Shown here piece by piece: positions 6,953-46,133 of a stretch of 64,000 bases of DNA. The stretch covers positions 96,859 to 160,858 of the forward strand of contig DATNPK010000108.1 in assembly GCA_036703275.1 (NCBI GenBank), read 5' to 3'. Position 1 is the first letter of the stretch. Every line of letters starts with the position of its first letter. The notes beneath the pieces are model-generated. The model saw nothing but the letters and a program-made list of their open reading frames with translations, was not told the DNA's origin and did not search any database. The position numbers were made by a program, and so were the translations under genes. The stretch is from Coleofasciculaceae cyanobacterium. GTDB taxonomy: Bacteria > Cyanobacteriota > Cyanobacteriia > Cyanobacteriales > Xenococcaceae.

Positions 6953-7066
6953 CTTAAAGATAATAAACGTGAATTGGTTAGAGGCAAGGCAGTCTCTTGC
7001 CCAGACAAAAGTTAAATACAAAAGTTAAAAAGTAGTCAGCCCCGTCAAGTAGGATCGGGATAATCA

Positions 7067-7984
7067 ATGCTTATGCACAATTTTTTAGAAACAGCCTATT
7101 TTCAAAACAAATTTGTTCCTTTTGAACAGGCAAATATATCTATTGCCACTCATGCGCTACATTACGGAACTGGCGCTTTTGGTGGAATGAGAGGTATTCC
7201 CGATCCAGAAAACCCCGAGCGAGTCTTATTATTTAGATTGGATCGTCATTGTACTCGTTTAAGCGACAGTGCCAAGCTGCTTAATTACGATTTACCTGCG
7301 GACAAAATACAGCAAATAATTATTGATTTTGTTAAGAAAAATAAACCTGATAAATCTTTTTATATTCGACCTTTCGTCTATACTTCAGATTTAGGTATTG
7401 CTCCGCGACTGCATAAAATCGAAAAAGACTTTTTGATTTATGGTTTAGAGTTGGGCGATTACTTGCCCCCCGACGGTATTAGCTGTCGCATCAGTTCTTG
7501 GTATCGCCAAGAAGACCGCAGTTTGCCCCTACGCGGTAAAATTAGCGGGGCATATATTACCTCTTCTTTAGCTAAAACCGAAGCAGTTGAATCTGGTTTT
7601 GATGAAGCAATTCTGATGAATTCTCAAGGTAAAGTTTGTGAAGCTTCAGGCATGAATATTTTTATCGTCAGAAACAATCAATTAATTACGCCTGGGTTTA
7701 ATCAAGACATTTTAGAAGGAATTACTAGAGACAGCATCTTAACTATTGCTAAAGACTTGGGTATCGAAACTGTAGAAAGAGCGATCGATAAAACCGAATT
7801 ATTTATTGCTGAAGAAGTATTTTTAAGCGGAACAGCAGCCAAAGTAACTCCCGTTAAAAAAATAGAAAACTATGATTTATCTACCGATAGACCAATTACC
7901 GAAAAAATCAAGCATAAACTAACGGCAATTACTAAAAATCAAGAGCCAAAATACCAGAATTGGATTTATACAGTTGATTTTTAA
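7067..7984 (+). CDS. ilvE: Branched-chain amino acid aminotransferase
   Basis: A fold-type IV PLP enzyme of 305 residues, the usual size for IlvE. It carries the family start (VPFEQANISIATHALHYGTG), the PLP lysine in RGKISGAYI (about residue 158), the region EAILMNSQGKVCEASGMNIF and the segment EVFLSGTAAKVTPV. It catalyses the last transamination in Leu, Ile and Val synthesis. Dihydroxy-acid dehydratase (ilvD, 47947) is elsewhere in the window, so the pathway is not clustered. The ATG at 7067 is followed by a second Met two codons later; either could start translation. Confidence 0.92.
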   Translation: MLMHNFLETAYFQNKFVPFEQANISIATHALHYGTGAFGGMRGIPDPENPERVLLFRLDRHCTRLSDSAKLLNYDLPADKIQQIIIDFVKKNKPDKSFYIRPFVYTSDLGIAPRLHKIEKDFLIYGLELGDYLPPDGISCRISSWYRQEDRSLPLRGKISGAYITSSLAKTEAVESGFDEAILMNSQGKVCEASGMNIFIVRNNQLITPGFNQDILEGITRDSILTIAKDLGIETVERAIDKTELFIAEEVFLSGTAAKVTPVKKIENYDLSTDRPITEKIKHKLTAITKNQEPKYQNWIYTVDF

Positions 7985-8018
7985 GCAATTAAAAATATAA
8001 GTTTTTTCCAGTTGCTAA

Positions 8019-8177
8019 TTATTTGGTAAATGTCTCAAAGGTAGAGGTAAAATCTGTGATTTTATAGGTTGGATGAAAACGCGTTAACCATTCAAAAGCA
8101 TACTTATCGATCGGTTTAAATTCTTGTTCGATAGTTTGAGAAGTAGAGGAACGATTAACCGATTTTGAAGCTATATC
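8019..8177 (-). other. Open fragment without a start, possible gene remnant
   Basis: Leftward from 8177 a 52-residue open stretch without ATG reads through EQEFKPIDKYAFEWLTRFHP to a stop at 8019. It begins just after an in-frame TGA. It looks more protein-like than chance, but no family is recognised. It could be the surviving tail of a gene that followed the PH-like gene. Confidence 0.25.
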
Positions 8178-8219
8178 TCAACTGTTTTGAGCGTATTGAA
8201 GGTAGTCAATATTAGTTTC

Positions 8220-8627
8220 TTATATAGAGCTGATTTTAATTAAAGCTTTATACAAATCTTTTAATTCCTCGAGATATTTTTTATGAATATCAATAACATA
8301 TTGATAAGAGCCGATGGTAAACTTAATTTGAACGTCAAGATTGATAGTTTCTGCGGTTTGCAAAACTACATTTTGGATGGCATATTTACCGTAGTTTAAA
8401 CGTTTTAAAGTTTGCTTTTTACTCACGGCGGATGTTCCGTCAATATGAATTAAAGCCCTATTGGTAAAGCAGTACTCGTCTGTCTTAGATTTAATTAAAA
8501 AAAAGATTTTTTCTTTCTCTTCTTGCAAAATAAAATCGTCAGATTCTACCTTGTCAAAATCTTCTGGTTTGACAATAATTCCAATATCACTTAGACCAAG
8601 AACATCAGAAGCAATTCTTTTAAACAT
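8220..8627 (-). CDS. Bacterial PH-like domain protein (PF08000 type)
   Basis: A 135-residue soluble protein with the pattern of the bacterial pleckstrin-homology-like family bPH_1. The N-terminal LGLSDIGIIVKPEDFDKVES resembles the lead-in, and the strands FFLIKSKTDEYCFTNRALIHID (F..TNRAL) are diagnostic. The central AVSKKQTLKRLNYGKYAIQN segment and the final helix YLEELKDLYKALIKI complete the domain. Members form ring oligomers in other bacteria, with unknown role. It stands alone between ilvE and mbnP. The T/A-rich codon usage is similar to its neighbours. Confidence 0.7.
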   Translation of the reverse strand: MFKRIASDVLGLSDIGIIVKPEDFDKVESDDFILQEEKEKIFFLIKSKTDEYCFTNRALIHIDGTSAVSKKQTLKRLNYGKYAIQNVVLQTAETINLDVQIKFTIGSYQYVIDIHKKYLEELKDLYKALIKISSI

Positions 8628-8910
8628 ATAGCATTGCTCAATATTATGCTGATTATCCTGAAAAAATTAGAGTATAGCTTTTAACCTCATGGATTGGCAG
8701 TAAATCTTTAAGAATCTAAATCGCAGTAGCTTAAATTGCCTTAAAGATTGTCTTAAACTATGTGGCGATCGCCTTTCATTATGACATCGAATATAAATTA
8801 AATTAAGTTTTACAGTCTGTCTTTGGACAGGGGCAGAGGTTTTTCGATACTATAAAAAATTATTATTGTATTAGTTGCAAAACTAGTCACTATTAATTTT
8901 TTTTAAATCG

Positions 8911-9969
8911 ATGTTTTTAGCATTTAAGCGAAAATCTTTATTACTAGCCATAGGCATTGCCTTTAGTGCTTACGGTCATGTCCAGGCTCAAACTAATACT
9001 CAAGACGTGGCAATTAACTTTGAAGCCTGGGTGGGCGATCGCGAATTTTCCTGTGGCGAGAGCTATGAGAACATAGGTACTGCTGAGTCGACAATCACTC
9101 CCACTGACTTCCGCTTCTATGTATCCAATGTCGCTTTAATTGATGAAGATGGTAACGCTGTTCCCCTCGAACTAGAACAAGACGGCAAATGGCAACATGA
9201 AAAGGTGGCTCTACTAGACTTTGAAGATGGAACTAGTGCCTGTGATAACGGTACAGCAGAAATGAGAACGATGGTAGTCGGCACAGTACCCGAAGGTAAC
9301 TATCAAAGCCTCCAGTTTACTATGGGCGTACCAGAACAACTCAACCATGAAGATGCGGCGATCGCACCTTCTCCCCTCAACCTGACTTCGATGTGGTGGA
9401 ATTGGCAGGGGGGTTATAAGTTTTTGCGGGTAGACTTAGAAACCGAACAGGCGATTGCTAATGTATCACAAACCAGCCACAGTCAAACTACTCAAAGTCA
9501 AGCTGGTGAGGATAATGTGCAAATAAATGAGCAAACTACTAACACCAGCAGCGAACGGGGAAGCCAGACTACGACTCAAACTAGCAACCAAACTAGTATT
9601 TTCAAGAATGGACAGGGTACTCATCAACAAACCAGCAGTACTACTCATCAAGATGCAGGCAGTAATGCTTACTCAATTCATTTAGGTAGTACTGGATGTT
9701 CAGATTCAGCCCAAAGCGATTTGTTCGGCTGTGCTAATTCCAATCGCGTTAGCGTGGTGTTGGAAGATTTTAATCCTGAAGATAATGTGGTTATTGCCGA
9801 TTTAGCCGAGCTTTTAGCCCAAAGCGACTTGACTACTAACCAGGCTGATACGCCTACTGGCTGTATGTCTTCCCCTGAAGATAGTGATTGTATGCCAATC
9901 ATGCAAAATCTCAATCTGTCTTCTAACAACACAGCAGAATCAGGGCAATATTTCTTCTTTGTTGAGTAG
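8911..9969 (+). CDS. MbnP-family copper-binding protein, periplasmic
   Basis: A predicted exported protein of 352 residues with a signal peptide (about 1-26, ending VQAQ). Family signatures in order: FEAWVGDREFSCGESYENIG, TDFRFYVSNVALI, WQHEKVALLDFEDG...C.NGT, GVPEQLNHEDAAIA, SPLNLTSMWWNWQGGYKFLR, HLGSTGC and TGCMSSPEDSDC. These fit the MbnP family, whose methanotroph member carries a tryptophan-derived kynurenine made by the di-heme enzyme MbnH and binds Cu(I). The gene is followed 83 bp later by an MbnH-type enzyme. Unusually, about 75 residues rich in Gln, Thr and Ser (about 176-249) are inserted between GYKFLRVDLE and HLGSTGC. Confidence 0.85.
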   Translation: MFLAFKRKSLLLAIGIAFSAYGHVQAQTNTQDVAINFEAWVGDREFSCGESYENIGTAESTITPTDFRFYVSNVALIDEDGNAVPLELEQDGKWQHEKVALLDFEDGTSACDNGTAEMRTMVVGTVPEGNYQSLQFTMGVPEQLNHEDAAIAPSPLNLTSMWWNWQGGYKFLRVDLETEQAIANVSQTSHSQTTQSQAGEDNVQINEQTTNTSSERGSQTTTQTSNQTSIFKNGQGTHQQTSSTTHQDAGSNAYSIHLGSTGCSDSAQSDLFGCANSNRVSVVLEDFNPEDNVVIADLAELLAQSDLTTNQADTPTGCMSSPEDSDCMPIMQNLNLSSNNTAESGQYFFFVE

Positions 9970-9975
9970 TTTTCA

Positions 9976-10027
9976 GTTGAGTAGAACACACAAGTTTAAT
10001 CTCAAAAGCTAATAGCTAATAGCTAGT
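9976..10027. repeat. Dispersed GTTGAGTAGAACACAC + AGCTAATAGC repeat
   Basis: GTTGAGTAGAACACAC (9976-9991) is the reverse complement of a sequence found at 26104-26119 and 37354-37369. It is followed by AGCTAATAGCTAATAGCTAG. In all three places the two units sit together in an intergenic gap, so this is one composite dispersed repeat. Confidence 0.6.
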
Positions 10028-10052
10028 TAATCAACAACGTAGTCTATCAAGC

Positions 10053-11240
10053 ATGAAAACTGCTGAAAAATCCGTAATGAGCGATCGCATATCTTACCTG
10101 CTTGTTGCTTTTGTTGTGTCTATTTGTCTATCAATCGGCATGAGTCAAGCTATGGCAACAGACGGACATTTAGCTAGAGCAACTGAATATAACTGGAATT
10201 TACCAGAGTGGACACCAAAACCCATAGTCCCTAAAAACAATCCGATGACTGCGGAGAAAGTTGAATTAGGCAGACAACTTTTTTATGAACCACGTCTATC
10301 GATTACGGGGGAATATTCTTGTGCTTCTTGTCACAAGCAGTCTTTAGCCTTTACCGATGGTAAGCCAGTAGCATTGGGTTCAACTAACGAACAGCATTCT
10401 CGGAACTCGATGAGCTTGGCAAATGTCGCTTATAGCCCTGTGTTGACATGGGCTAATCCTCTAATCACTAGCTTAGAAAATCAGGCACTGATTCCAATTT
10501 TTGGCGAACATCCGCTGGAGATGGGCATGGTGGGTAAAGAACAGCAAATGATTCAATGGATAAAAAATGATCCTGAATATCGTCATATGTTTAGTGGAGC
10601 ATTCACCGAAGAACAGCCTGTTAATCTAAGTAATTTGACCAAAGCGATCGCCAGCTTTCAAAGAAGTCTCGTATCCTTTAATTCTCCTTACGATCGCTAT
10701 CGTTATCAGGGAGAAACCAACGCTATTTCGGCTGCTGCTAAACGAGGTGAAAAGCTATTTAATAGCGAACGCTTGGAATGTTTTCACTGTCATGGAGGAA
10801 TCAACTTTAGCGATTCAGTCAAGCATGAAAATCTAGCATTTACCGAGATCGCATTTCACAACACTGGTTTATATAATATCGATGGCGAGGGTAGTTATCC
10901 GCCACAAAATACGGGAATTAAGGAATTTACCCAAAAAGCCAAGGACATGGGGCGATTTAAAGCTCCTAGCCTGCGTAACATTGCTTTGACTGCACCCTAT
11001 ATGCACGATGGTAGCGTGGCTACTTTACAGAATGCGATCGCTCACTATCAGGCTGGAGGTAGAACTATCACCGCAGGAGAATGGACAGGAGTAGGTAGTG
11101 CCAATCCTTATAAAAGCGGGTTCGTTAAGGGGTTTAAAATTACCGATACAGAAATAGATGATTTAATTGCGTTTTTGCAGAGTCTAACGGATGAGGAATT
11201 TATTACCAATCCTGCCTACAGCGATCCTAATGAATTTTAA
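10053..11240 (+). CDS. MbnH/MauG-like di-heme enzyme (cytochrome c peroxidase family)
   Basis: A 395-residue exported di-heme protein of the bacterial cytochrome c peroxidase/MauG superfamily. A signal peptide covers about residues 1-35 (AMA cleavage). The first heme motif is CASCH (about 90-94), the second CFHCH (about 243-247), and the distal region contains the family motif APYMHDGS. Its position directly behind an MbnP gene supports the MbnH subgroup, which oxidises a Trp of MbnP to kynurenine. Both genes are probably cotranscribed. Plain peroxidase activity cannot be excluded from sequence alone. The 3' end overlaps the convergent DUF2993 gene by 14 bp. An in-frame Met at residue 9 is an alternative start. 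Confidence 0.85.
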   Translation: MKTAEKSVMSDRISYLLVAFVVSICLSIGMSQAMATDGHLARATEYNWNLPEWTPKPIVPKNNPMTAEKVELGRQLFYEPRLSITGEYSCASCHKQSLAFTDGKPVALGSTNEQHSRNSMSLANVAYSPVLTWANPLITSLENQALIPIFGEHPLEMGMVGKEQQMIQWIKNDPEYRHMFSGAFTEEQPVNLSNLTKAIASFQRSLVSFNSPYDRYRYQGETNAISAAAKRGEKLFNSERLECFHCHGGINFSDSVKHENLAFTEIAFHNTGLYNIDGEGSYPPQNTGIKEFTQKAKDMGRFKAPSLRNIALTAPYMHDGSVATLQNAIAHYQAGGRTITAGEWTGVGSANPYKSGFVKGFKITDTEIDDLIAFLQSLTDEEFITNPAYSDPNEF

Positions 11241-30640: not shown

Positions 30641-33600
30641 CTAGTTATTTCCTGGTAGCTGCTGTGGTTGTGCGGGCGGAATGCGATTACCCTCTGGGCG
30701 AAGGGGGACGCCTTCGCGAACCATAGTTGCTGTCATAGGTGTAAAACGACTGGGTTGAACGCAGGGGGCATTATCTAGTTCGTCTCTTAGCTTGCCTGCA
30801 AAAGTTTCAAACATATCCGATAAAGTTTGGCGATCGCTCAAGCATCCCTGTAACGCAGTCAGTTGTTCTAGCGTCCAGTTGTAAAGCTGAGTGTCTCCCT
30901 GTTCGATGCGTAAATATAGCTGAGTTTCAAACTGTCCCAAGCGAGAGTAGAAGTTGTTTACCTCTGCCTTAATAGTCTGCATATCCATAAAGAACTGTTG
31001 TTTCTTGATATCGGATAGGACAGTGGTTTTAATCGAGTCGGTGTAGTTTTGGTTTAACTCATTTTTAACGATAGAAGTGACATCATCGCGGAAGTTGAGG
31101 ATTTTGTTTTCCAGTTTGACATCAATGCGATCGTCTACGTTATTTATGACGTTATTGACGACTACTTGGACGCTATTGTCAGTTTTGTTTTCTACTGCTG
31201 TATTAATACGTCTGTCGATGTCAGTTTGTAATTGATTGACCACCAGGTTTTTGATGTTCTGGGTTTGAACTTCTAGCTTGGAGTCAACCGTAGAATTAAC
31301 CCGCTTCTCTAGATCTCCCTGTAACTTTTTAGTTACGGAGTTATCGATTTCTAAAGTTTGATCTGTTAGTTTGAGATTGACTACAGAATCGATCCGTTTG
31401 TCTACATCCGCCTGTAGCTGTTGAATTACCAGATTTTTAATATTCGGCGTTTGGTCGGCAACCTTAAGATTGACTACAGAATCGATCCGCTTATCCATAT
31501 CTGCCTGTAGCTGTTTGATTACCTGGCTATTAATCTCTTGTGCCTGGTTTTCTACTTTGACATTAACGACTGTATTAATACGTTGATCGATGTCACTCTG
31601 TAACCGTTGGACGACGAGGTTATTGATTTCTTCGGCTTGGTTATCGACCTTGAGGTTAACTACTGTATTGATACGATTATCGATATCGCCCTGTATTTGT
31701 TCGACAACCTGGTTTTTGATTTGAGTAGAGCGATCGCTGATCTTTAAATTAACTACTGACTCTACACGCTTATCAATATCACTCTGTAGCTGTTGAATAA
31801 CTTGGTTTTTAATTTCCGTAGAGCGATCTCTCAGTTTTAGATTTACTTGTTCTTCAACCATCGAAGTCATTCTGGTATCGATTAGTTCGTTCAACCGACT
31901 ATCAAAATAACTAGACCAACCCTGAAAGTTTTGGTTAAAGCTGACTTCCATCTGTTGTGTGATGGACTTCATCATAAACTCTAACCGCGCTACTTGAATG
32001 GCTAAGTCTTTAGCCTGGGTTTGATAGCCTTTGAGAATCCACTTCTCTAAATTGTCCCAGTAATAAGCTTCTTTCTTCTCATCTTGTTCGTCAGTTACCG
32101 TAACCGAAGTCTCGATTTTGGCTGCCATTTGCTGCCACATCCGTTCCATTTCGGCTTCATCAAAGCGGAAGCTAAAGCTATTCCCGCTACCAACTTTTAT
32201 CTGCTGAGATGTTTTACCACCGTTTCCACCATTGCCACCACTTGCGCTGGTAACTGTGGTTTGAGTGGTACTGCTTTTAGAAGTAGCAACGCCAACTTTC
32301 TCTGTACTTTGTCCACTACTGGATGCGCTGACACTCTCTCTCTCGGTACTTTTATTAGTTCCACCACTGGATGCAGTAACGTTAACCTTATCAGTACTGT
32401 TAGTTGTTCCAGCAGTAACCGTAACCTGCTGTTGATATTGCTTGGCTATCTCTTCTGCACTCACAGATTCAACTGCAACAATAATTTGTCCTTCGTTATC
32501 TTCTTTGTAGGTATCGAAGAACAAGCCCGATAAAGTAGTTTTAGTTTTTACTTCTAAAACAAACTCGTCTTTTAGACCGTTTAAAGAACACCAGGTTTCA
32601 CTAGTTTCCACTCCTGAAAGCTGAGTGACAAACTTACCCGCCTTAATCTGGATTAATGCCCAAGGTTCTAGCTTGAATTTTTTCTCATCCGACCAATAGC
32701 TAGCATTGCCTTCTCGGATCTTGACCCGATAGTTACCAGGGGCGAGTTCGATAAAGTTTTGTGACCACTGTTTGAGAGTGGATAAATATTGTTCGTTGAG
32801 GATATAAGTATTGCTTTTACTGTTAACAGTTAGTTCTTGAGTTTGAGAATTATCGTTGTTTTTAACCGTCAATTTAACCGAACCGCTATGTTGGCGGTTA
32901 TTTAGATTAAAAAATAAAGCACACAAAACAGCCTGTCCTTTTATTTCTAGCTGTAGCTTCTGATTGTATCCATTTAAAGTCGTCCAGGTAGCACCCGTTT
33001 CTACTCCCGTATTTTGGTTAACAAAGGTACTGCCTTCAGTGCCATAGATCCACAGTAAGACAAAAGGTTCTCCCTCTGATTCATTACTATAGCTGTAGCG
33101 TCCATCGGTAATCTGAATCTCAAAATTACCTCGATCTAACGTTAGCTTACTGGCAATATTTTCTTGCAGGGTATTCATCCCTTCAGGATCGATTACGTAA
33201 CAGTTGTCTTTAGTATCGATAGTTAATAGCTGCATATTTTCCTCCACTGTTTGCTGAGATTGATTAGAATTAGTTTCTGAAACGGTTGCTGTCTTGGCTA
33301 GTACTGGTTGATATACGGTCATACCCGCCCAACGATTAGCAGGATTGGTTTTGGTGACTACCTTGCCTTTACCCGTCTTGATATCGATGCGAATTAGCTG
33401 CCCGTCTTTACCTAAATTAAAGAAGTTACCCGTTACGCCATAAAGAACATCATCGATAAATTCCATGCTGGCAAGATCGGGGAAATCAATATCACCAATA
33501 ACTTGAACTTTGCCACTATCTAGATCGCAGGTAGCTAATTGTTTCTTATTGTCAGTACCGATTAAAGTAATATAGGCTTTACCAGAACTATTAAACGCAA

Positions 33601-34693
33601 CTTCTCCACAACCCCGCTTGTCTTTACTTACCGTTACCGCAGGCTTACCTTTACCCGTTTTGAGATCGATCGCAATTAATTGTTTGGCAGCAGAAGCATA
33701 TAAAGTATCGCGCTGGCTATTATACGCCAACCCTACCACATCAAAGCTAATATTCCCTACTGCGACTGCTTTTCCAGCGCGATCGATCTGTACCAACTCA
33801 GTTGTTTTGTTACCCCGACGTAATCCATATAGTTGCGAACCGACAAACGCTAGATCGTAAACCTCTGTAGTAATTGAACCTATTAAATCTGCTTTTCCTG
33901 TCTGAAGATCTAGGGTATAAAGCTGACTAGCTTTTCCAGCCACACAATCCTGAATATATACCGTACCAGATTCAAAATTCATGCTATCTGTTTTCATAGT
34001 ACGACTGCCACAGATAACCTTTTCTAAAACAGCACCAAATCCTTCAAGGCAATCGCGATTTGTAAAAGCTTGTCCTCCCGTTTTGGTAGCTAGTCTGGCG
34101 TATTCTGAAGCAATACCCTGTCGATGTTTGCTCTTGGATGTTCCGAAATAAGTATGAACGATAACTCCTGCTGCTTGAGCTTTCGTAATAGCAGCATTTG
34201 CCGATTCAATATCCGTCCGTTCGGTTTTAGAACCTCCACCATCGAAGGCTTCGTCACCCAGATAGAATATGACTTTGCTGGCATTTTCTCGCCAGTTGAA
34301 GTGTTCGATTAAATCCTCGATCGCTCGCGCGCCATCTTCTTGCGCCCCTGCTGATTTTAACTCCCCCCGCTTTCTGCTTCTTAGGGAAGATTCACTAACC
34401 TTACATTCATTAGTTAAATAGTTCCTGACCGTTCGAGCAAACTGTGTTTCTTTCCACGTTCCTTCGATTCCCAGCCAAATGACTCTTAAGTTCGACGGAC
34501 AGCTAACTTTAGCTGCATCAATTGCTGTTTGAGCTGCTTTATTTAAAGCTTGAGCTTCGTCTTTCATTGAAGGACTAGTATCGATAACGATTACTAAATC
34601 CGTATTGGGGATGTTGTTTAAAGATCGATCGTTCATTTTATTGGGCTTTCTTGGTTTAAGCAAAGAAAAAATACTTCTAAGCATAGAAAACAT
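30641..34693 (-). CDS. Large vWA / beta-propeller / coiled-coil repeat protein
   Basis: A 1350-residue protein in five parts. (1) von Willebrand A domain, about 31-228, with the metal motif DTSPS (38-42) and a later GDEAFDGGGS. (2) A beta-propeller-like region, about 240-470, with repeated TGKAxLIG / YGL / DLKTGKGK units. (3) Two related beta domains, about 495-620 and 625-750, each with a GVETxxTW.xLNG stretch. (4) A Ser/Thr/Gly-rich linker, about 755-835. (5) A coiled coil to about 1290 with seven 31-residue repeats. There is no signal peptide, so it is probably cytoplasmic. The family is not recognised. The last residues (VREGVPLRPEGN) are encoded by a palindromic repeat-like stretch at about 30680-30725. 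Confidence 0.75.
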   Translation of the reverse strand: MFSMLRSIFSLLKPRKPNKMNDRSLNNIPNTDLVIVIDTSPSMKDEAQALNKAAQTAIDAAKVSCPSNLRVIWLGIEGTWKETQFARTVRNYLTNECKVSESSLRSRKRGELKSAGAQEDGARAIEDLIEHFNWRENASKVIFYLGDEAFDGGGSKTERTDIESANAAITKAQAAGVIVHTYFGTSKSKHRQGIASEYARLATKTGGQAFTNRDCLEGFGAVLEKVICGSRTMKTDSMNFESGTVYIQDCVAGKASQLYTLDLQTGKADLIGSITTEVYDLAFVGSQLYGLRRGNKTTELVQIDRAGKAVAVGNISFDVVGLAYNSQRDTLYASAAKQLIAIDLKTGKGKPAVTVSKDKRGCGEVAFNSSGKAYITLIGTDNKKQLATCDLDSGKVQVIGDIDFPDLASMEFIDDVLYGVTGNFFNLGKDGQLIRIDIKTGKGKVVTKTNPANRWAGMTVYQPVLAKTATVSETNSNQSQQTVEENMQLLTIDTKDNCYVIDPEGMNTLQENIASKLTLDRGNFEIQITDGRYSYSNESEGEPFVLLWIYGTEGSTFVNQNTGVETGATWTTLNGYNQKLQLEIKGQAVLCALFFNLNNRQHSGSVKLTVKNNDNSQTQELTVNSKSNTYILNEQYLSTLKQWSQNFIELAPGNYRVKIREGNASYWSDEKKFKLEPWALIQIKAGKFVTQLSGVETSETWCSLNGLKDEFVLEVKTKTTLSGLFFDTYKEDNEGQIIVAVESVSAEEIAKQYQQQVTVTAGTTNSTDKVNVTASSGGTNKSTERESVSASSSGQSTEKVGVATSKSSTTQTTVTSASGGNGGNGGKTSQQIKVGSGNSFSFRFDEAEMERMWQQMAAKIETSVTVTDEQDEKKEAYYWDNLEKWILKGYQTQAKDLAIQVARLEFMMKSITQQMEVSFNQNFQGWSSYFDSRLNELIDTRMTSMVEEQVNLKLRDRSTEIKNQVIQQLQSDIDKRVESVVNLKISDRSTQIKNQVVEQIQGDIDNRINTVVNLKVDNQAEEINNLVVQRLQSDIDQRINTVVNVKVENQAQEINSQVIKQLQADMDKRIDSVVNLKVADQTPNIKNLVIQQLQADVDKRIDSVVNLKLTDQTLEIDNSVTKKLQGDLEKRVNSTVDSKLEVQTQNIKNLVVNQLQTDIDRRINTAVENKTDNSVQVVVNNVINNVDDRIDVKLENKILNFRDDVTSIVKNELNQNYTDSIKTTVLSDIKKQQFFMDMQTIKAEVNNFYSRLGQFETQLYLRIEQGDTQLYNWTLEQLTALQGCLSDRQTLSDMFETFAGKLRDELDNAPCVQPSRFTPMTATMVREGVPLRPEGNRIPPAQPQQLPGNN
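31172..31822 (-). repeat. Seven in-frame 93-bp repeats in the vWA gene
   Basis: The pattern [I/V]KNxVxQQLQxDIDxRI then NTVVNLKVxxQ recurs every 31 residues; CTACAGAATCGATCCG appears at 31381 and 31474, 93 bp apart. The period keeps frame, so copy number could vary without breaking the gene. Confidence 0.8.
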
Positions 34694-37295: not shown

Positions 37296-37933
37296 TGAAG
37301 TTTCCTCTTCCCGCAGGATATCCGAAGGTGTATGCTTTAGCACAATGTGACTTGTGTGTTCTACTCAACCAAAAAGCTCAGTAACACAAGCTTACTTAGC
37401 TAATTTTCACATTTTTTAACAAATAATGATAAACTCTAAAACATAAACTTGCTTAAATAATCAGAGTAGATGAGTATTAGATAGGTTTTTGTTTGCACAG
37501 CTCTAAGGTTAACTTCAATTACCTACAAACAAATTTCTTACTTATGACTATTTATAGATACTCATAAGTAAGAATTGTGTTAAACATATTATGTGGGTAG
37601 GATCGGGTAAGTTAGTTTATAGCTATCCAAAAAAAAACTTACCAATTAAAACGTTGGTTTAGAGTTTAACCTTGCCATCTTATCTATTACTTAAAAAAAT
37701 TAAACTTACTGAATTTGAACTGCAAGCAATAAATATAAAGGTACACTTAACAATAAAGCTAAGCTACTGTCCTCAGTAACTGGAACTAATTTAGAGCGGC
37801 CAATATATTTGCTAGCTAGAGCTAAAAATTAGCTCTGGATGTTTGTGTTGTTCAGAAATAAATAGGCAGTTCATTAATTAATATGCGAATCATTTTTCGT
37901 AGATATTTTAATTGTATTTAGGCAAATCAAAGA
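37296..37933. other. Intergenic region upstream of the MysB/MysC-like cluster
   Basis: About 640 bp without a supported gene. It carries a CCGAAGGTG palindrome fragment (about 37321), GTGTGTTCTACTCAACC (37354-37370, continuing as AAAAAGC) and a perfect 13-bp inverted repeat TTCTTACTTATGA (37535-37547) / TCATAAGTAAGAA (37562-37574), well placed for an operator. Confidence 0.5.
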
Positions 37934-38221
37934 ATGAGCCAAATTGAAGCAAAATTCGTAGCTACCGACACCACATTTAGAGTAAAGGGTTACGAAAAGA
38001 TTGAATACGAGCTTTTATTTAAAGAAGGTGTATTTAATCCCCAAACTAGAGATGAGCTGCTGAAAGCAGCAGTATATAAGCTAATGGGGACTTGCTACTT
38101 GGTCAACGATTCAGACCAAGAAGCAAGTGCCAAGGCATTGGCAAAACATAGGCGGATTTGTGCCGAGTATCCCGATGCAGAATTAAGAACGCAAGTATGC
38201 ATAATAAATAATGACAAGTAA
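37934..38221 (+). CDS. Small unknown protein at the head of the mycosporine-like cluster
   Basis: 95 residues: an acidic and basic soluble protein (FVATDTTFRVKGYEKIEYEL, LLKAAVYKLMGTCYLVNDSD), with a helix-rich C-terminus and no signal peptide. I recognise no family. It lies 40 bp before the MysB-like gene, in the same direction, so it is likely cotranscribed. A regulator or accessory role cannot be assigned. Confidence 0.6.
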   Translation: MSQIEAKFVATDTTFRVKGYEKIEYELLFKEGVFNPQTRDELLKAAVYKLMGTCYLVNDSDQEASAKALAKHRRICAEYPDAELRTQVCIINNDK

Positions 38222-38261
38222 ATCAGAACCAGAATTATTAGTAGGGAGCATTTAATTTATC

Positions 38262-39137
38262 GTGGTAAGCACAGCAAATACGTCCGACATCAACGCTAGG
38301 AACAATTCCCAGCAACACGAACCAAAAAAAACCGCCAGACCAGTAACTCCATTGGGTATTCTCGTCCAGCAGCTAGAACATATTTCCAACGCAGCTAAAA
38401 CCGAATCAGTTTCGCCTGAATTTAAATTATCTTTGGACAAAGCATATCACTTAGCTGCGGGTCTTGACCCCTATCTCGAAGCCTGCACTACTTCTGAATC
38501 AGAGGCTCTAGCTAACTTGACGGCTAAAACACAAAAAGAAGACTGGGGTAAGCATTTCGACGACGGAGCAACAGTACGCGCCTTAGAACAAGAAATGCTC
38601 TCAGGGCATATTGAAGGACAACTGCTAAAAATGCTGGTGTCGATTAGTAAATCTAAGCGTGTTTTAGAAGTGGGAATGTTTACAGGCTATTCGGCTTTGG
38701 CGATCGCTGAAGCTTTGCCCGATGACGGTTATCTGATCGCTTGTGAGGTAGATGAATATGTCTCTCAATTTGCGCTCGACTGCTTTGCTGCTTCTGCTCA
38801 CGGTAAAAAAATTGAGGTCAAAGTTGCTCCTGCGATCAAAACCATGCAGCAATTACTAGAAGCTGGCGAATCTTTTGATTTAGCGTTTATTGATGCCGAT
38901 AAAGGAGGGTATATCGATTATCTTAATCTCTTGTTAGATACCGATTTATTAGCTCCCGATGGCTTTATCTGTGTAGATAACACGCTGATGCAGGGACAAC
39001 CTTATCTACCAGAAAATCAGCGTCAGGAAAATGGTCAGGCGATCGCCCGTTTTAACCGTTTTGTAGCCGACGATCCTCGTGTCGAACAGGTTTTAATTCC
39101 GATCCGCGACGGTTTAACCATCATTAAACGCAAGTAA
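38262..39137 (+). CDS. mysB: MysB-like O-methyltransferase (mycosporine pathway)
   Basis: 291 residues from GTG. A class I O-methyltransferase of the caffeoyl-CoA OMT group (VLEVGMFTGYSALAIAEALP as motif I; LAFIDADKGGYIDYL; DGFICVDNTLMQGQ), very close to the mycosporine enzyme of Anabaena (Ava_3857 type): LILSGHIEGQ-type lead, AAGLDPYLEACTTSESEAL and VDDPRVEQVLIPIRDGLTII-like end. In that pathway it methylates demethyl-4-deoxygadusol to 4-deoxygadusol. A MysC homologue follows 46 bp later. Confidence 0.85.
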   Translation: MVSTANTSDINARNNSQQHEPKKTARPVTPLGILVQQLEHISNAAKTESVSPEFKLSLDKAYHLAAGLDPYLEACTTSESEALANLTAKTQKEDWGKHFDDGATVRALEQEMLSGHIEGQLLKMLVSISKSKRVLEVGMFTGYSALAIAEALPDDGYLIACEVDEYVSQFALDCFAASAHGKKIEVKVAPAIKTMQQLLEAGESFDLAFIDADKGGYIDYLNLLLDTDLLAPDGFICVDNTLMQGQPYLPENQRQENGQAIARFNRFVADDPRVEQVLIPIRDGLTIIKRK

Positions 39138-39183
39138 TTTTCACAGGGACGTTTGCGAGAACGTTCATCCTAATATTTAAAAC

Positions 39184-40566
39184 ATGGCACAAAGATTATT
39201 TATTTCCCGTAGTGGTTCGGCAATTGCTAAAAATTTAGGTACTCTAATTTTGTTATTGCTACTGCTTCCATTTAACCTGGGAATGATCGTAGCGTCTTTA
39301 ATTGGCAGCGTCATTTCTGGTAAAGGTATTTCGCGATCGCCTTTAGAGACGCCAGGCGATCGCGCCCTCAATCCAGTAGAACCCAAGAAAATTCTAATTA
39401 CTGGAGCGAAGATGACCAAAGCTTTGCAGCTAGCCAGATCTTTTCATCGAGATGGGCATGACGTATATTTAGTTGAAACACATAAGTATTGGCTATCGGG
39501 TCATCGTTTTTCCCGTGCTGTAAAAGGCTTTTATACCGTACCCGTACCCGAAAAAGAACCAGAAGCTTACTGTCAAGCTTTGATTGATATAGCCAAGCAA
39601 CAAAACATCGATCTCTTTATTCCCGTATCTAGCCCCATTGCTAGTTATTATGATTCCTTAGCGAAAAAGGCTTTAGAACCCTATTGTGAATCAATTCATT
39701 TAGATCCAGGAGAAACGGCAATTCTCGACGATAAACACGCCTTTTGCTCTAAAGCAAGAGAATTAGGCTTGTCTGCACCTAAAGTATTTCGCATTAGCGA
39801 TCCGCAACAAATATTAGATTTTGATTTTGAGCGTGACGGCAGCAAATATATAGTTAAAAGTATTCCCTACGATTCGGTATTGCGGTTAGATTTAACCAGA
39901 TTACCCTTTCTGGGGATGGAAGAATATGTGCGTAACTTACCTATCAGCCCCGAAAAACCTTGGGTAATGCAGGAATTTATTCGCGGACAAGAATATTGCT
40001 TCCATGCCACAGCACGTAACGGCAAAATTAGACTACACTGTTGTTCCAAGTCTTCGCCTTTCCAGGTTAACTATGAACAGGTTAATAATCCCGCCATTTA
40101 TCAGTGGGTAGAAACCTTGGTGCAGAAAATGAATCTAACAGGACAAATTTGTTTTGACATGATTCAAGTCGAAGACGGAACGGTATACCCCATTGAATGT
40201 AATCCCCGTCTCCATTCGGCTATTACTATGTTTCACGATCATCCAGGAGTAGCAAATGCCTATCTAACCGATGGTGAACCAGGAGAAGCACCTATTACTC
40301 CTTTGCCCGATAGCAAACCAACTTACTGGACGTATCACGAACTTTGGAGATTACTAAGTATTCGCTCTTTAAAAGAACTGAATGCCTGGTGGCAAAAGAT
40401 GAGTCAAGGAACTGACGCTATTTTAAGCCCAGATGATCCTTTACCCTTTTTGATGCTCCATAATTGGCAAATTCCTTTGCTGCTACTCGATAATCTACGT
40501 CGTCTCAAAGGCTGGGTCAAAATAGATTTTAATATCGGCAAATTAGTCGAAATCGGCGGTGACTAG
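39184..40566 (+). CDS. mysC: MysC-like ATP-grasp ligase (mycosporine pathway)
   Basis: 460 residues. An N-terminal hydrophobic segment (LGTLILLLLLLPFNLGMIVA) precedes an ATP-grasp domain. The start MTKALQLARSFHRDGHDVYL, the lid KYIVKSIPYDSVLRLDLTRL, the metal-binding region YPIECNPRLHSAITMF and the tail RLKGWVKIDFNIGKLVEIGG match MysC (Ava_3856 type), which joins glycine to 4-deoxygadusol to make mycosporine-glycine. It lies between the two methyltransferases. Confidence 0.88.
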   Translation: MAQRLFISRSGSAIAKNLGTLILLLLLLPFNLGMIVASLIGSVISGKGISRSPLETPGDRALNPVEPKKILITGAKMTKALQLARSFHRDGHDVYLVETHKYWLSGHRFSRAVKGFYTVPVPEKEPEAYCQALIDIAKQQNIDLFIPVSSPIASYYDSLAKKALEPYCESIHLDPGETAILDDKHAFCSKARELGLSAPKVFRISDPQQILDFDFERDGSKYIVKSIPYDSVLRLDLTRLPFLGMEEYVRNLPISPEKPWVMQEFIRGQEYCFHATARNGKIRLHCCSKSSPFQVNYEQVNNPAIYQWVETLVQKMNLTGQICFDMIQVEDGTVYPIECNPRLHSAITMFHDHPGVANAYLTDGEPGEAPITPLPDSKPTYWTYHELWRLLSIRSLKELNAWWQKMSQGTDAILSPDDPLPFLMLHNWQIPLLLLDNLRRLKGWVKIDFNIGKLVEIGGD

Positions 40567-40628
40567 TAGCGGAAAAGCATTACCTTTTTCCTACTACTAC
40601 AATACAAAATTAATTATTCAATCAAACA

Positions 40629-41684
40629 ATGGTCTCAACTAGCGCAAATCCGAATACAGAAGCTAAAAAAAGAGCTTTCAATTTAATGTTGACCTTTGTT
40701 AAAAGTCAATGTGTTTATGTGGCAACCCGCTTGGGCATCTTCGATCTATTGAACGATCGCGGAGAACAAACGGTAGAAAGTTTAGCTCAAGCAACTAATA
40801 CTGATACCGAACGACTCTATTTTATTCTGCGTGCATTGGCTCATGTGGAAGTATTAGCCGAAAAAGCAGGACGAGTATTTGCCCCAACCGAAACCTCTAC
40901 TTTACTAGTCACCAATCAAGAACCATCCGCAGGACATTTGTTAATGCACCTGATCGAACCCGCGCAATGGGATGCCTGGAAAGTATTACCAGAAGCTTTG
41001 GCTAAAGGAGTAGTTCCTTTTGAACTAGCCAACAATCAAGGTGTTTATCAATATTGCTACGATAACAAGTGGAGTAAAAACACTTTTGTCAAAGCGATGA
41101 GTTTTTTGACCAACTCTCAGGTAGAAGGATTACTCGATGCCTATGATTTTGGTCAGTATGAAACCGTAATGGATGTCGGCGGTGGACAAGGTGGTTTAAT
41201 TGCCAATATTGTTAAGCGTTATGGCTGCAAGGGAATTTTGTTTGATGTGCCAGATGTGGCAGAAACCGCCAGAGAATATATCAGTAGTTTGGGTGTCGAT
41301 CCAAATGCTATAGAGATTAAAACGGGAGATGTTTTTCAGTCAGTGCCAACAGGGGCGAAGGCGATCGTCATGAAGCACTTTATCTCCGCCTGGAGTGATG
41401 AAGATGCGATGAAAATTCTCGCCAATTGCAAAGCAGCACTTCCTGATGATGGCAAACTGATTTTATTACAGTCTTTTGTCCCCGATCTCGACGAACCAAA
41501 AACCGCAGCCGATGGTATTATGCCTGGTATCTTTGCGGTACAAATTAATGTAGCAACTGCTGGTGGTGGCTGGCGGACCAAAAAACAGTTTCAGGAATTG
41601 TTTGAAAAAAGCGGCTTTAAACTAGAACGAATTATCAAAACCGATAATAGCCTATCGGGAATGGAATTCAGCATATTAACTTGA
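40629..41684 (+). CDS. Second O-methyltransferase (dimerisation-domain type)
   Basis: 351 residues. It has an N-terminal winged-helix dimerisation domain (YVATRLGIFDLLNDRGEQTV, about 25-105) and a C-terminal SAM domain (TVMDVGGGQGGLIANIVKRY; ILFDVPDVAETAREYI; DDGKLILLQSFVPD). It is like plant-type OMTs and hydroxyneurosporene methyltransferase, unrelated in type to MysB. It lies 62 bp behind MysC and 10 bp before the symporter, so it probably acts on a mycosporine product or precursor. That substrate is inference. Confidence 0.8.
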   Translation: MVSTSANPNTEAKKRAFNLMLTFVKSQCVYVATRLGIFDLLNDRGEQTVESLAQATNTDTERLYFILRALAHVEVLAEKAGRVFAPTETSTLLVTNQEPSAGHLLMHLIEPAQWDAWKVLPEALAKGVVPFELANNQGVYQYCYDNKWSKNTFVKAMSFLTNSQVEGLLDAYDFGQYETVMDVGGGQGGLIANIVKRYGCKGILFDVPDVAETAREYISSLGVDPNAIEIKTGDVFQSVPTGAKAIVMKHFISAWSDEDAMKILANCKAALPDDGKLILLQSFVPDLDEPKTAADGIMPGIFAVQINVATAGGGWRTKKQFQELFEKSGFKLERIIKTDNSLSGMEFSILT

Positions 41685-41694
41685 AATAATAATC

Positions 41695-43089
41695 ATGTCG
41701 ATCGCTCTGTCTTTCATTTTCTTTTTGATCTTATTTACCGTAGTCGGGATTTATGCTGCAACGCAACAACAGGATACGACTACCGATTATTTGTTAGCAG
41801 GAAGAAAGGTTAACCCTTGGGCGATCGCTTTATCTGCTTTGTCTACTGGGCAAAGCGGATTTTTATTTACTGGGCAAGTGGGATATTCCTATACGCAAGG
41901 TTTATCATCGATTTGGTTGGCAATTGGCTGGGCGATCGGTGATTATTTGGCTTGGCTATTAGTATTTAAAAAATTACGTCTAGTTTCAGAAGCTTCAGAT
42001 TCGGAAACTGTACCTGCATTTTTGGCACAAAAACAACCAGGTTATCGTTGGATTACGGTTATTGCCGCACTGATTACGATTTTATTTCTGGGTGCTTATG
42101 CTGCTGCACAACTGCTAGCAGGAAGCAAAGCACTCAACAGCCTGTTTGGTTGGGATTATGCCTGGGGCAATGTTATTGGGGCAGTTGTTGTCGTAATTTA
42201 CTGCTTTTCCGGGGGAATTAGGGCATCAATTTGGACAGATTCAGTCCAAACCATCGTGATGATTGGTGCATTGTTGATGTTGCTGGGAGTAACGCTCTCG
42301 GTTGGTGGTGGAGTTGGTGACATATATAATAATTTAAGCGAGATAGATACCAACTTAGTAAGCTTGTTTCCCTCAAATTTAGCCTGGGGATTCTTCCCGT
42401 TTTTGCTCGGCTGGTTAGCGGCGGGATTTGGTGCTGTAGGGCAGCCTCATATTGTAGTGCGGGCAATGGCAATTGATTCGGCAGATAATATGGGAAAAGC
42501 GCGAGATATTAGAACTATTGGCGGTTTTATTACAGCTTTTAGCGCGATATTTATCGGGTTAGCAGCTAGAGTATTATTACCCGACTTAAACGATCCAGAA
42601 TTAGCACTATTGAACTTATCACAAAATCTCTTACCAGGAATTTTGGTTGGAGTAATCTTGGCTGGCTTGTTCGCAGCGACGATTTCTACGGCGGATTCTC
42701 AGATTTTATCTTGCTCTGCGGCTCTGACTCAAGACTTATTTCCTGGGTTAGCTAAGTCGTATCGATTCGCCAAAATCGGTACTTTAATCGTCACCGCAAT
42801 TGTCTTGGTAATTGCTTTAGCTAATAACGATAGTGTGTTTAGCTTGATTACCTTTGCCTGGTCAATTTTAGCTTCTGGTTTGGGAGTTTTACTAATTTTG
42901 CGGTGCTTTGAAAAACCTGTCTCTACTCCTGTTGCGATCGCCATTATGCTATCGGGAATTGCCGTTTCTCTGTTTTGGAAATTAAGTTTACAGTTATCAG
43001 ATGCGGTATATGAAGTTTTTCCAGGTATGGCTGCGGGATTGATAGTTTACTTAATCGCTTGTTTGTTGATAAGACCAAAAAAAGTTTAG
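41695..43089 (+). CDS. Sodium:solute symporter (SSS family), cluster-linked
   Basis: 464 residues and about 13 helices: TTDYLLAGRKVNPWAIALSALSTGQSGF, SGGIRASIWTDSVQTIVMIG (the core R..TDSVQ segment) and AGLFAATISTADSQILSCSA. It resembles the proline/Na+ symporter group. It is 10 bp behind the second methyltransferase. A link to the cluster product, or uptake of an amino acid precursor such as glycine or serine, is possible. Confidence 0.85.
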   Translation: MSIALSFIFFLILFTVVGIYAATQQQDTTTDYLLAGRKVNPWAIALSALSTGQSGFLFTGQVGYSYTQGLSSIWLAIGWAIGDYLAWLLVFKKLRLVSEASDSETVPAFLAQKQPGYRWITVIAALITILFLGAYAAAQLLAGSKALNSLFGWDYAWGNVIGAVVVVIYCFSGGIRASIWTDSVQTIVMIGALLMLLGVTLSVGGGVGDIYNNLSEIDTNLVSLFPSNLAWGFFPFLLGWLAAGFGAVGQPHIVVRAMAIDSADNMGKARDIRTIGGFITAFSAIFIGLAARVLLPDLNDPELALLNLSQNLLPGILVGVILAGLFAATISTADSQILSCSAALTQDLFPGLAKSYRFAKIGTLIVTAIVLVIALANNDSVFSLITFAWSILASGLGVLLILRCFEKPVSTPVAIAIMLSGIAVSLFWKLSLQLSDAVYEVFPGMAAGLIVYLIACLLIRPKKV

Positions 43090-44894: not shown

Positions 44895-46133
44895 TTATTT
44901 AAACGATGTCTTGATTTTTTTGCCAATATTTAGCAGATTACCACCAAAAAGATGGCGATCGAGACGTTTGATTTGCCCCGAGAAATCTTGTTCGTGATAT
45001 CTTCTAGAAATCTTAATAATACCATCAACTAAATCATCACGACCAAGCTGAGATAAAGGTTGAATTAGCTCAAGATAGCAGTTTTCTCCATAAGCATCGC
45101 TGAGATAACAATTTTCAACTAATAATTCGTAAGAAACATCTTTTTCAACAAAGGTATCTACTCGATCTAACAATCCTAATGCCAGTAATGCAGTCTTGGT
45201 TTTGAGGCACTTATAACACTTTCCGCAGTTATAGTTACCTTGACTGTAGCTGCTTTTTTCGTTGCATACCCTAAGATTTTTTAAAGCTACATCCCATTTG
45301 GCTATCAATTTAATTTTTTCTAGCCTAGACAAAGCAGCATTTTCATGACGAATTTGCAGCCCAAAATTGCTATATAAACCGTCTAATAGAGGATGAGAAC
45401 CCCAAGGCTCTAAACTGGCATAATCATAAGTAGAGGCAATTGAAGCGATAGTTAATCTGGGTGCAAAAGCATGAGCAATCGCCGCTAAAAACGAGCCAAG
45501 ATACTCAAGTCGCCAAAAACTAAAGTTGGGATCTAAATCTCTAAAATGAGCATAAGCGTTTGTAGAAACCTGAATCAAATTTATACCTGCATCATCAGCG
45601 ATCGCCGAAACAGCATTGATTACATTTTTAAAATTAGGATCGGATTCGTTTTCGCCTTGCAGAATTCCGTACACTAAAATTCCGTCTTTAATATGACGCG
45701 GATGTTCGGCAGAGAAATTAAGCCGATTATCTTGCAGCATTGCTAAAGCATCAATGCCTCCGGAAAAGAATGCACCTGCACGCGGTTGATTTTTGGGAAA
45801 TAACACCGTCGATTGGATCGCTGCTTCGATGGGAATTACTTTGCGGTCGCCTCCATGCCAATTTATCAGACATTTCATCGCGCTATATAAGCCATCTTTA
45901 ATTTCGGGACAGATTGGCGCATCTATGGCGATTCGTTCTTCTCCGTAGCGCATGGCAGGAAGTGCGCTGGCCAGTAAAAAAGAGTTGGGATTTGGGAAAA
46001 GATCATCTTGAAATTTAGCAGTAGTTTCAAAATAAACATCTTGGCACTTGCGATCGCAATTTTCCCAAATAAGCCTTGCAGTTATCCTGGCTCGATCTGC
46101 TACAATCTCTTTTCTGAAATTTTCTATTTTCAC
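44895..46133 (-). CDS. PP-loop (ExsB/QueC-like) ATPase-domain protein
   Basis: 412 residues. Residues about 112-125 (AGAFFSGGIDALAML) give the SGGxD ATP pyrophosphatase loop with Ala instead of Ser after Asp. A zinc-type cluster (YNCGKCYKCLKTKTALLALG, about 310-330) is the PP-loop C-terminal cysteine pattern. The N-terminus (about 1-100) is a beta-rich domain not found in QueC. Proteins of this type appear in cell-surface and natural-product loci and their reactions are unknown. Single gene. Confidence 0.65.
   Translation of the reverse strand: MKIENFRKEIVADRARITARLIWENCDRKCQDVYFETTAKFQDDLFPNPNSFLLASALPAMRYGEERIAIDAPICPEIKDGLYSAMKCLINWHGGDRKVIPIEAAIQSTVLFPKNQPRAGAFFSGGIDALAMLQDNRLNFSAEHPRHIKDGILVYGILQGENESDPNFKNVINAVSAIADDAGINLIQVSTNAYAHFRDLDPNFSFWRLEYLGSFLAAIAHAFAPRLTIASIASTYDYASLEPWGSHPLLDGLYSNFGLQIRHENAALSRLEKIKLIAKWDVALKNLRVCNEKSSYSQGNYNCGKCYKCLKTKTALLALGLLDRVDTFVEKDVSYELLVENCYLSDAYGENCYLELIQPLSQLGRDDLVDGIIKISRRYHEQDFSGQIKRLDRHLFGGNLLNIGKKIKTSFK

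What the first reader, a model, noticed from the sequence alone, without database searches (positions are those of the whole stretch)
37934..43089. Mycosporine cluster with MysB and MysC but no cyclase, and with an extra methyltransferase and symporter
The genes at 38262 and 39184 follow the known MysB and MysC proteins across their length. The usual partners MysA (dehydroquinate-synthase-like cyclase) and MysD/MysE are not in the flanking genes. In their place are a 95-residue unknown protein, a second O-methyltransferase of a different type, and a sodium symporter, all in one direction and closely spaced. The cluster may make a further-methylated mycosporine, or use a 4-deoxygadusol precursor made elsewhere (the pentose or shikimate route, or a distant mysA). 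The symporter may handle product or amino-acid substrate.
Basis: partly seen in the sequence, partly recalled or inferred. Interest (0 to 1): 0.72.

Follow-up and report, generated by a model that had tools for sequence, protein, structure and literature searches.

The report
Sunscreen operon whose cyclase was replaced
In this cyanobacterium the first gene of a UV-sunscreen (mycosporine) operon has been deleted down to a 95-codon scar, and a second kind of cyclase gene elsewhere in the genome likely does its job, which would explain how bacteria lacking the textbook gene could still make these sunscreens.

Summary
The window holds intact mysB and mysC, an extra methyltransferase gene (OMT2) and a Na+/solute symporter. 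The "95-residue unknown protein" is mysA with about 310 internal codons deleted. No other mysA was found in the genome, but it encodes a divergent 586-aa sugar-phosphate cyclase ("long MysA2") on another contig. Among 64 mysC-bearing genomes in two overlapping samples (60 genomes, the own one included; 386 across the phylum), 36 have mysA, 14 short MysA2, 11 long MysA2, 3 none; none has two types. In two Leptolyngbya-like genomes that likely received the cluster from Pleurocapsales, long MysA2 sits in the mysA position. mysB, mysC and OMT2 remain under purifying selection without mysA. Best reading: long MysA2 supplies the mysB/mysC substrate in trans and made mysA dispensable. All 18 long-MysA2 genomes found have mysC, an adjacent DUF6492 gene, or both; here only a short DUF6492 remnant is left. 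Missing mysA, mysD and mysE in most Pleurocapsales is already in print (PMC8472315). I saw the scar, exclusion, slot swap and DUF6492 link in no search listing or passage. No chemistry was tested.

The parts
37899..37919 (+). Upstream block (GTAGATATTT..ATTGTATTT), imperfectly shared with intact and deleted mysA loci; probable promoter or leader element kept after mysA was lost (function inferred)
   Evidence: Alignment of 7 loci, 4 intact and 3 remnant
37934..38221 (+). 95-codon mysA scar: internally deleted mysA, reading frame open across the join
   Evidence: tblastn matches both ends of intact MysA about 1 kb apart; DNA alignment
37934..38044 (+). part of the scar matching MysA codons 1-37
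   Evidence: 83% nucleotide identity to Pleurocapsa MO_192.B19 mysA nt 1-112
38045..38197 (+). part of the scar matching MysA from about codon 347 to near its end
38222..38255 (+). old mysA tail, now out of frame, directly before the mysB start
   Evidence: DNA alignment
38262..39137 (+). mysB, class-3 O-methyltransferase (291 aa, GTG start)
   Evidence: PF01596 E 1.5e-51; synteny; dN/dS 0.10 against G012
39184..40566 (+). mysC, ATP-grasp ligase (460 aa)
   Evidence: PF02655, NF005315; synteny; dN/dS 0.10 against G012
40629..41684 (+). OMT2, second methyltransferase of the dimeric Methyltransf_2 type (351 aa)
   Evidence: PF00891 and PF08100; best solved relative CalO6 4z2y; dN/dS 0.09 against G012
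41695..43089 (+). sodium:solute symporter (464 aa), common neighbour of mys genes
   Evidence: PF00474 E 4.7e-60; 17 of 24 fetched mysC loci

Best explanation
The 95-codon ORF is an internally deleted mysA, and the 586-aa cyclase encoded on another contig of the same genome (long MysA2, G000:C28:3349-5109) likely makes the cyclitol that MysB would methylate and MysC would join to an amino acid. Shown by sequence: the scar; no other mysA found; the presence of long MysA2; the mutual exclusion of cyclase types in the genomes examined; long MysA2 in the mysA position of two other clusters; purifying selection on mysB, mysC, OMT2 and long MysA2. Inferred: that long MysA2 turns sedoheptulose 7-phosphate into desmethyl-4-deoxygadusol or a close relative, that this made mysA dispensable, and that the operon is still active from its old upstream region. 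Also inferred: with no MysD found and no close MysE relative, the product would be a mycosporine with one amino acid (mycosporine-glycine type), likely methylated further by OMT2. Long MysA2 appears to have been shared with, or taken over from, a pathway using a DUF6492 protein.
For: Scar: both ends of intact MysA match within 95 codons. G011 has a different 99-codon in-frame deletion; G012 and G004 hold more decayed pieces.

No other mysA found in the own genome: three DHQ-synthase hits; the scar query, which finds mysA in 14 other genomes of the same sample, finds only itself there.

Exclusion: of 64 mysC-bearing genomes, 36 have mysA, 14 short MysA2, 11 long MysA2, 3 none, 0 have two types (tallied in 104). 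Within the family, 9 long against 7 mysA with no overlap (Fisher 9e-5, not corrected for kinship).

Slot position: in L030 and L031 long MysA2 is directly upstream of mysB-mysC-OMT2. Their MysB+MysC nest inside a group of the window's genus plus G019 (100/97), and their cyclase within a group of the genus's long MysA2 (85/100).

Selection: dN/dS 0.05-0.14 for mysB, mysC, OMT2, SSS and long MysA2 between mysA-less genomes at dS 0.34-2.0; controls: mysB and mysC of two mysA-bearing genomes 0.087 and 0.075, MurE 0.116.

Repeat: the mysA-less label needs 3 changes on the MysB+MysC tree (10 of the 11 such genomes were in it).

Fold: model of long MysA2 (pLDDT 89.5) matches 5tpr with TM 0.93 by target length, 0.64 by model length.

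Partner: 18 of 18 long-MysA2 genomes have mysC (11) and/or DUF6492 (11, each adjacent); DUF6492 in 0 of 7 mysA genomes. Only short DUF6492 remnants lie beside long MysA2 in the window genome and G012.
Against: No chemistry or expression data. Long MysA2 is only about 38% identical to MysA, lies in a separate clade, and its substrate-loop segment differs (DAGPSPRTCCDG in place of DASVAIKVAVNH), so its product may differ. In 7 of 18 genomes it occurs without mysC, so it has another role as well. In the window genome it is unlinked to mysB. Three mysC-bearing genomes have none of the three cyclase types: G028 (a lone mysC), G030 (36% match only) and G043 (a different cyclase). Cyclase classes were assigned by identity, not by inspecting every gene. 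Two of the 64 mysC copies (G010, G036) carry stops. Short-MysA2 rows list a stop inside the matched stretch in 11 of 11 cases and 5 of 6, as do two MysA-class genomes (G027 in one of two copies, G395); most of these open frames are still 440-508 aa, so the stops probably lie at the upstream edge of the match, but I did not examine them. Counts are not corrected for kinship, and several genomes are incomplete drafts. G010's mysA slot is off its contig. Three label changes may also be one gain and two losses.
Confidence: 0.7

Rival explanations
1. The precursor comes from the shikimate route: 3-dehydroquinate made by AroB is turned into 4-deoxygadusol, with MysB as the shared methyltransferase, so mysA is simply dispensable.
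For: An intact aroB is present. PMC9918943 (passages) cites work in which an A. variabilis mutant without the cyclase still made shinorine, and Synechocystis making MAAs without mysA. An eboD-like cyclase is present too.
Against: If AroB alone sufficed, mysA-less mysB-mysC operons should also occur in genomes without long MysA2. Of 64 mysC-bearing genomes the only ones lacking all three cyclase types are G028 (lone mysC), G030 (weak match) and G043 (own different cyclase).
Confidence: 0.13
2. The operon is decaying: mysA was lost first and mysB/mysC are leftovers, or they now act on another substrate.
For: mysA is pseudogenised; G010 shows stops in mysC and OMT2.
Against: dN/dS of 0.05-0.14 on mysB, mysC and OMT2 between mysA-less genomes, like MurE at 0.116. 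The cluster also stands in two Leptolyngbya-like genomes with long MysA2 in front.
Confidence: 0.1
3. Long MysA2 makes a different cyclitol for a DUF6492 pathway and its exclusion of mysA is a lineage accident; mysB and mysC are fed by uptake of a precursor through the symporter.
For: Long MysA2 occurs without mysC in 7 of 18 genomes, in each of them beside DUF6492; a symporter is in the operon.
Against: Seven long-MysA2 genomes keep mysC and lack an intact DUF6492. The slot position in L030 and L031. The symporter is also present where mysA is intact, as in L027, L034, L042 and L044.
Confidence: 0.07
4. The 95-residue ORF is a selected mini-protein rather than a scar.
For: Open frames survive in two genomes (window, G011). 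The N-terminal 36 codons of the window scar show low dN/dS (0.05-0.11; dN 0.07-0.13) against intact genes.
Against: The two joins differ. G012 has a stop, G004 is fragmented, and G002, G003, G006, G167 and G409 show no trace. The C-terminal part has dN 0.26-0.29 against 0.04-0.09 between intact genes, and the tail is frameshifted.
Confidence: 0.04

Closest known systems
Canonical cyanobacterial mysABC(D/E) cluster (Anabaena variabilis, Nostoc punctiforme)
   Same: mysB-mysC order and families; intact relatives carry mysA directly upstream
   Different: mysA is a 95-codon scar, no mysD found and no close mysE relative, extra OMT2, cyclase encoded elsewhere
mysA-less Pleurocapsales mys clusters (PMC8472315, passages read)
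   Same: That paper already reports mysA deleted in most Pleurocapsales, mysA-like homologues elsewhere of unknown role, and no mysD/mysE in most
   Different: In the passages I read it does not identify a remnant, a distinct cyclase clade, mutual exclusion, the slot position or DUF6492
DDGS, Anabaena variabilis Ava_3858 (PDB 5tpr)
   Same: Fold; long MysA2 model matches with TM 0.93 by target length
   Different: 35% identity in the structural alignment, a clade apart from MysA, altered substrate-loop segment, and a helical N-terminal domain of about 150 residues
'DDGS?' clade of sugar phosphate cyclases (PMC5133447, figure legend passage) and the second MysA clade (PMC10510106, passage)
   Same: Both papers note uncharacterised relatives distinct from DDGS/MysA
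   Different: Whether these are the same sequences as MysA2 was not checked
Extra methyltransferases in MAA clusters: MysF (PMC10510106); Brasilonema mysABC plus methyltransferase, transporter, mysH, mysE (PMC9918943); passages only
   Same: A second methyltransferase and, in Brasilonema, a transporter beside mys genes
   Different: Not compared by sequence; MysF is reported beside MysI and a Gly-specific MysE, neither of which is in this operon

Membership tests
mys (mycosporine) cluster | mysB and mysC orthologues adjacent and co-directional | tested here: met
mys (mycosporine) cluster | intact mysA cyclase in the cluster | tested here: not met
   only a 95-codon scar
mys (mycosporine) cluster | mysD or mysE for a second amino acid | tested here: inconclusive
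   neither is in the operon; no MysD hit in own genome at E <= 1e-15; 10 NRPS hits at 33-53% identity to one MysE, so a divergent MysE elsewhere is not excluded
mys (mycosporine) cluster | production of a mycosporine | not testable with these tools
   needs LC-MS
DDGS / MysA (for long MysA2) | sugar phosphate cyclase fold | tested here: met
   model against 5tpr, TM 0.93 by target length; PF01761 and PF24621
DDGS / MysA (for long MysA2) | Zn-ligand positions Glu, His, His and the GGG NAD motif (which residues these are is recalled) | tested here: met
   conserved in the alignments
DDGS / MysA (for long MysA2) | belongs to the MysA clade | tested here: not met
   separate clade with short MysA2, 100/99
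[quoted passage not shown]
   needs enzyme assay
N-terminal domain of long MysA2 in a known fold family | match to a known domain or fold | tested here: inconclusive

The most novel reading that the evidence does not exclude
Long MysA2 is a second entry enzyme to mycosporines, with a new helical domain, shared between a DUF6492 pathway and the mys pathway. It acts in trans, has displaced mysA more than once, and in the window's lineage has been captured by the mys pathway while both its old partner DUF6492 and mysA decay. Hidden cyclases of this kind would explain at least some mysA-less mycosporine producers without a shikimate route, and OMT2 would stand in for MysD/MysE to give a new methylated one-amino-acid mycosporine.
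Probability: 0.4. Interest if true: 0.72.

Novelty: new variant of a known kind. Interest (0 to 1): 0.57.

Why it matters
Whether mycosporines need the pentose-phosphate cyclase or can arise from the shikimate pathway has been argued since a mysA knockout still made shinorine (as told in PMC9918943, passage). Mys clusters without mysA can be read as incomplete or as evidence for the other route. Here the missing gene has a visible scar and a specific, testable substitute that genome mining for co-linear clusters would miss. It also points to a cyclase with an extra domain, a partner gene of unknown function (DUF6492), and an untested methyltransferase for sunscreen engineering.

Tried and rejected
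OMT2 goes with long MysA2: suggested by the first 24 loci, then rejected. OMT2 also sits next to mysC in G007, G009 and G016, which have intact mysA, and no close OMT2 was found in G011 and G019, which have long MysA2.

OMT2 replaces MysD/MysE: kept only as a lead. MysD or linked MysE is found in 5 of 6 mysC-bearing family genomes without OMT2 and 2 of 10 with it (divergent MysD, 39-43%, in G003 and G007); Fisher 0.035, not corrected for kinship. An earlier script used 0 of 10, leaving out those two divergent hits, and another table in it, with 43 in one cell, was a guess before the recount; neither is used.

EboD-like gene (L002) as the missing cyclase: it lies beside eboE, so it was filed with the ebo genes and not pursued; its activity was not tested.

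Selected mini-protein: see rivals.

N-terminal domain of long MysA2: no Pfam, Foldseek or convincing VIA match.

The MysB tally on relatives did not complete.

Dropped rows: G167_long and G254_long fell out of the cyclase tree because my trimming left one residue each; not all long genomes were put in. The MysB+MysC tree left out G010 (broken genes) and most of the phylum sample. In that tree two long branches meet (L045, L047), outside the part used. Short MysA2 as a group has only 79/80 support.

The paper searches cover open-licence PubMed Central only, and I saw listings and passages of seven papers, none whole; PMC9394291 and PMC11888242 gave nothing on this question and PMC13308351 only an intact mysABC in another genus.
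Full report
OBSERVATION. The nearest named relative of the cluster is a Myxosarcina metagenome genome (L024, same contig as G012; MysC 89%, OMT2 94%), and other close ones are named Pleurocapsales, Pleurocapsa and Hyella, so the host is most likely a pleurocapsalean cyanobacterium.

THE 95-RESIDUE ORF. Searched against 60 genomes (the own one included) it matched 18; 14 of these twice or more: about residues 1-62 at the start and 23-90 near the end of ORFs of 410-450 aa, about 1 kb apart. An intact gene of this type (G007) matches the solved Anabaena variabilis desmethyl-4-deoxygadusol synthase 5tpr at 646 bits over nearly its length. The DNA alignment shows homology to mysA nt 1 to about 115 joined to homology from about nt 1040 on; the last codons are frameshifted, while the stretch before mysB, with its start, is kept. 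So mysA was deleted in place. G012 leaves mysA homology at about the same left point but has a stop and further losses, compatible with one ancestral deletion. G011 has a different, 99-codon join. G004 (L025) has scattered pieces. G002, G003, G006, G167 and G409 show no trace, and G019 only very short matches (E 0.04). A similar upstream block is seen in the 7 loci aligned, though not letter for letter.

WHERE IS THE CYCLASE? The own genome (5.6 Mb, 116 contigs, completeness 100) gave three DHQ-synthase-family hits: aroB (360 aa), an eboD-like gene beside eboE, and L003, 586 aa, G000:C28:3349-5109 minus. L003 ("long MysA2") has about 150 extra N-terminal residues, predicted helical with confidence about 90, with no convincing fold match. 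Its catalytic part is modelled like 5tpr. A shorter 440-480-aa type, 44-51% identical, occupies the mysA position in Crocosphaera, Moorena, Calothrix, Roseofilum and others. In a tree of 36 rows MysA (100/99) stands apart from MysA2 (100/99), and long MysA2 is one group (100/99); short MysA2 has only 79/80.

DISTRIBUTION. Two overlapping samples were scanned: 60 genomes, own and relatives, and 386 genomes of the phylum. Classes were assigned by identity to L003: 70% or more long, 44-51% short, 35-39% MysA. Union of mysC-bearing genomes: 64. Of these 36 have mysA, 14 short MysA2, 11 long MysA2, 3 none of them, and 0 two types. In these samples no mysA or short MysA2 occurs without mysC; long MysA2 does in 7 genomes (two of them only 78-81% complete). 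In the family, 9 mysC genomes have long MysA2 and 7 have mysA, without overlap. The mysA-less label needs 3 changes on the MysB+MysC tree, which are three losses only if mysA was not regained; G167 and G409, from another family, are a clear separate case with mysB-mysC-mysD and no mysA.

SLOT POSITION. In L030 (Leptolyngbya foveolarum) and L031 (cf. Phormidesmis LEGE 11477) the order is long MysA2-mysB-mysC-OMT2. Their MysB+MysC fall inside a group of the window's genus plus G019 (100/97) and their cyclase among that genus's long MysA2 (85/100). The simplest reading is transfer of the pathway with this cyclase put in front.

SELECTION. Between mysA-less genomes dN/dS is 0.05-0.14 for mysB, mysC, OMT2, SSS and long MysA2; mysB and mysC of two mysA-bearing genomes give 0.087 and 0.075, and MurE 0.116. 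The scar's C-terminal part has dN 0.26-0.29 against 0.04-0.09 between intact genes; its N-terminal part is not faster than intact ones by much (0.07-0.13 against 0.01-0.11).

SECOND PARTNER. In 11 of 18 long-MysA2 genomes the next gene is a DUF6492 protein (PF20102); it was found in 0 of 7 mysA genomes searched. All 18 have mysC only (7), DUF6492 only (7) or both (4) (Fisher 0.013 for absence of DUF6492 going with mysC, not corrected for kinship). The window genome and G012 hold only short remnants of DUF6492 beside long MysA2 (about 32 matched residues here). This fits one cyclase with two users and a handover to the mys pathway in this lineage; it is inference.

ACCESSORY GENES. OMT2 adjoins mysC in 10 of 16 mysC genomes of the family. 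The symporter is in 17 of 24 fetched loci. No MysD was found in the own genome; its MysE-query hits are 33-53% identical.

LITERATURE. PMC8472315 (passages) already states that mysA is deleted in most Pleurocapsales, that mysA-like homologues of unknown role exist elsewhere, and that mysD and mysE are mostly absent. PMC10510106 (passages) notes two distant MysA clades, discontiguous pathways and MysF. PMC5133447 (passages) marks an uncharacterised "DDGS?" clade. PMC9918943 (passages) recounts the mysA-knockout result and an extra methyltransferase and transporter in Brasilonema. In the listings of searches (titles and starts of abstracts) I saw no paper on the scar, the exclusion or DUF6492; the listed papers were not read whole.

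VERDICT. A real, mostly orthodox mycosporine operon with an unorthodox supply of its first intermediate: a deleted mysA and, most likely, a trans-encoded substitute cyclase.

Noticed in passing
L155 (G043:C70) 6545-11117: A mys-like cluster with a different 423-aa cyclase (36% to MysA), a short 219-aa methyltransferase (34% to MysB), MysC (59%) and OMT2 (58%); a possible fourth kind of entry cyclase.
   Followed up: partly
L048 3147-3242 (beside long MysA2, own genome): A short remnant of a DUF6492 gene lies between long MysA2 and an ABC permease gene; broken pieces also in G012 (L107).
   Followed up: yes
L140 (G000:C28, about 112.7-113.3 kb): A 642-aa ORF that seems to join a methyltransferase-like part to a D-Ala-D-Ala-ligase-like ATP-grasp part, on the same contig as long MysA2.
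   Followed up: no
window 30641-34693: A 1350-aa ORF that looks von Willebrand-like at its start and has many near-repeats in its C-terminal half (judged by eye).
   Followed up: no
window 44895-46133: A 412-aa ORF with no Pfam or NCBIfam match at E <= 0.01.
   Followed up: no
L169 (G028:C143): A lone mysC-like gene with no mysB or cyclase on its short contig.
   Followed up: partly
L117 (G010): mysC and OMT2 carry stops, so this relative may be losing the pathway.
   Followed up: no
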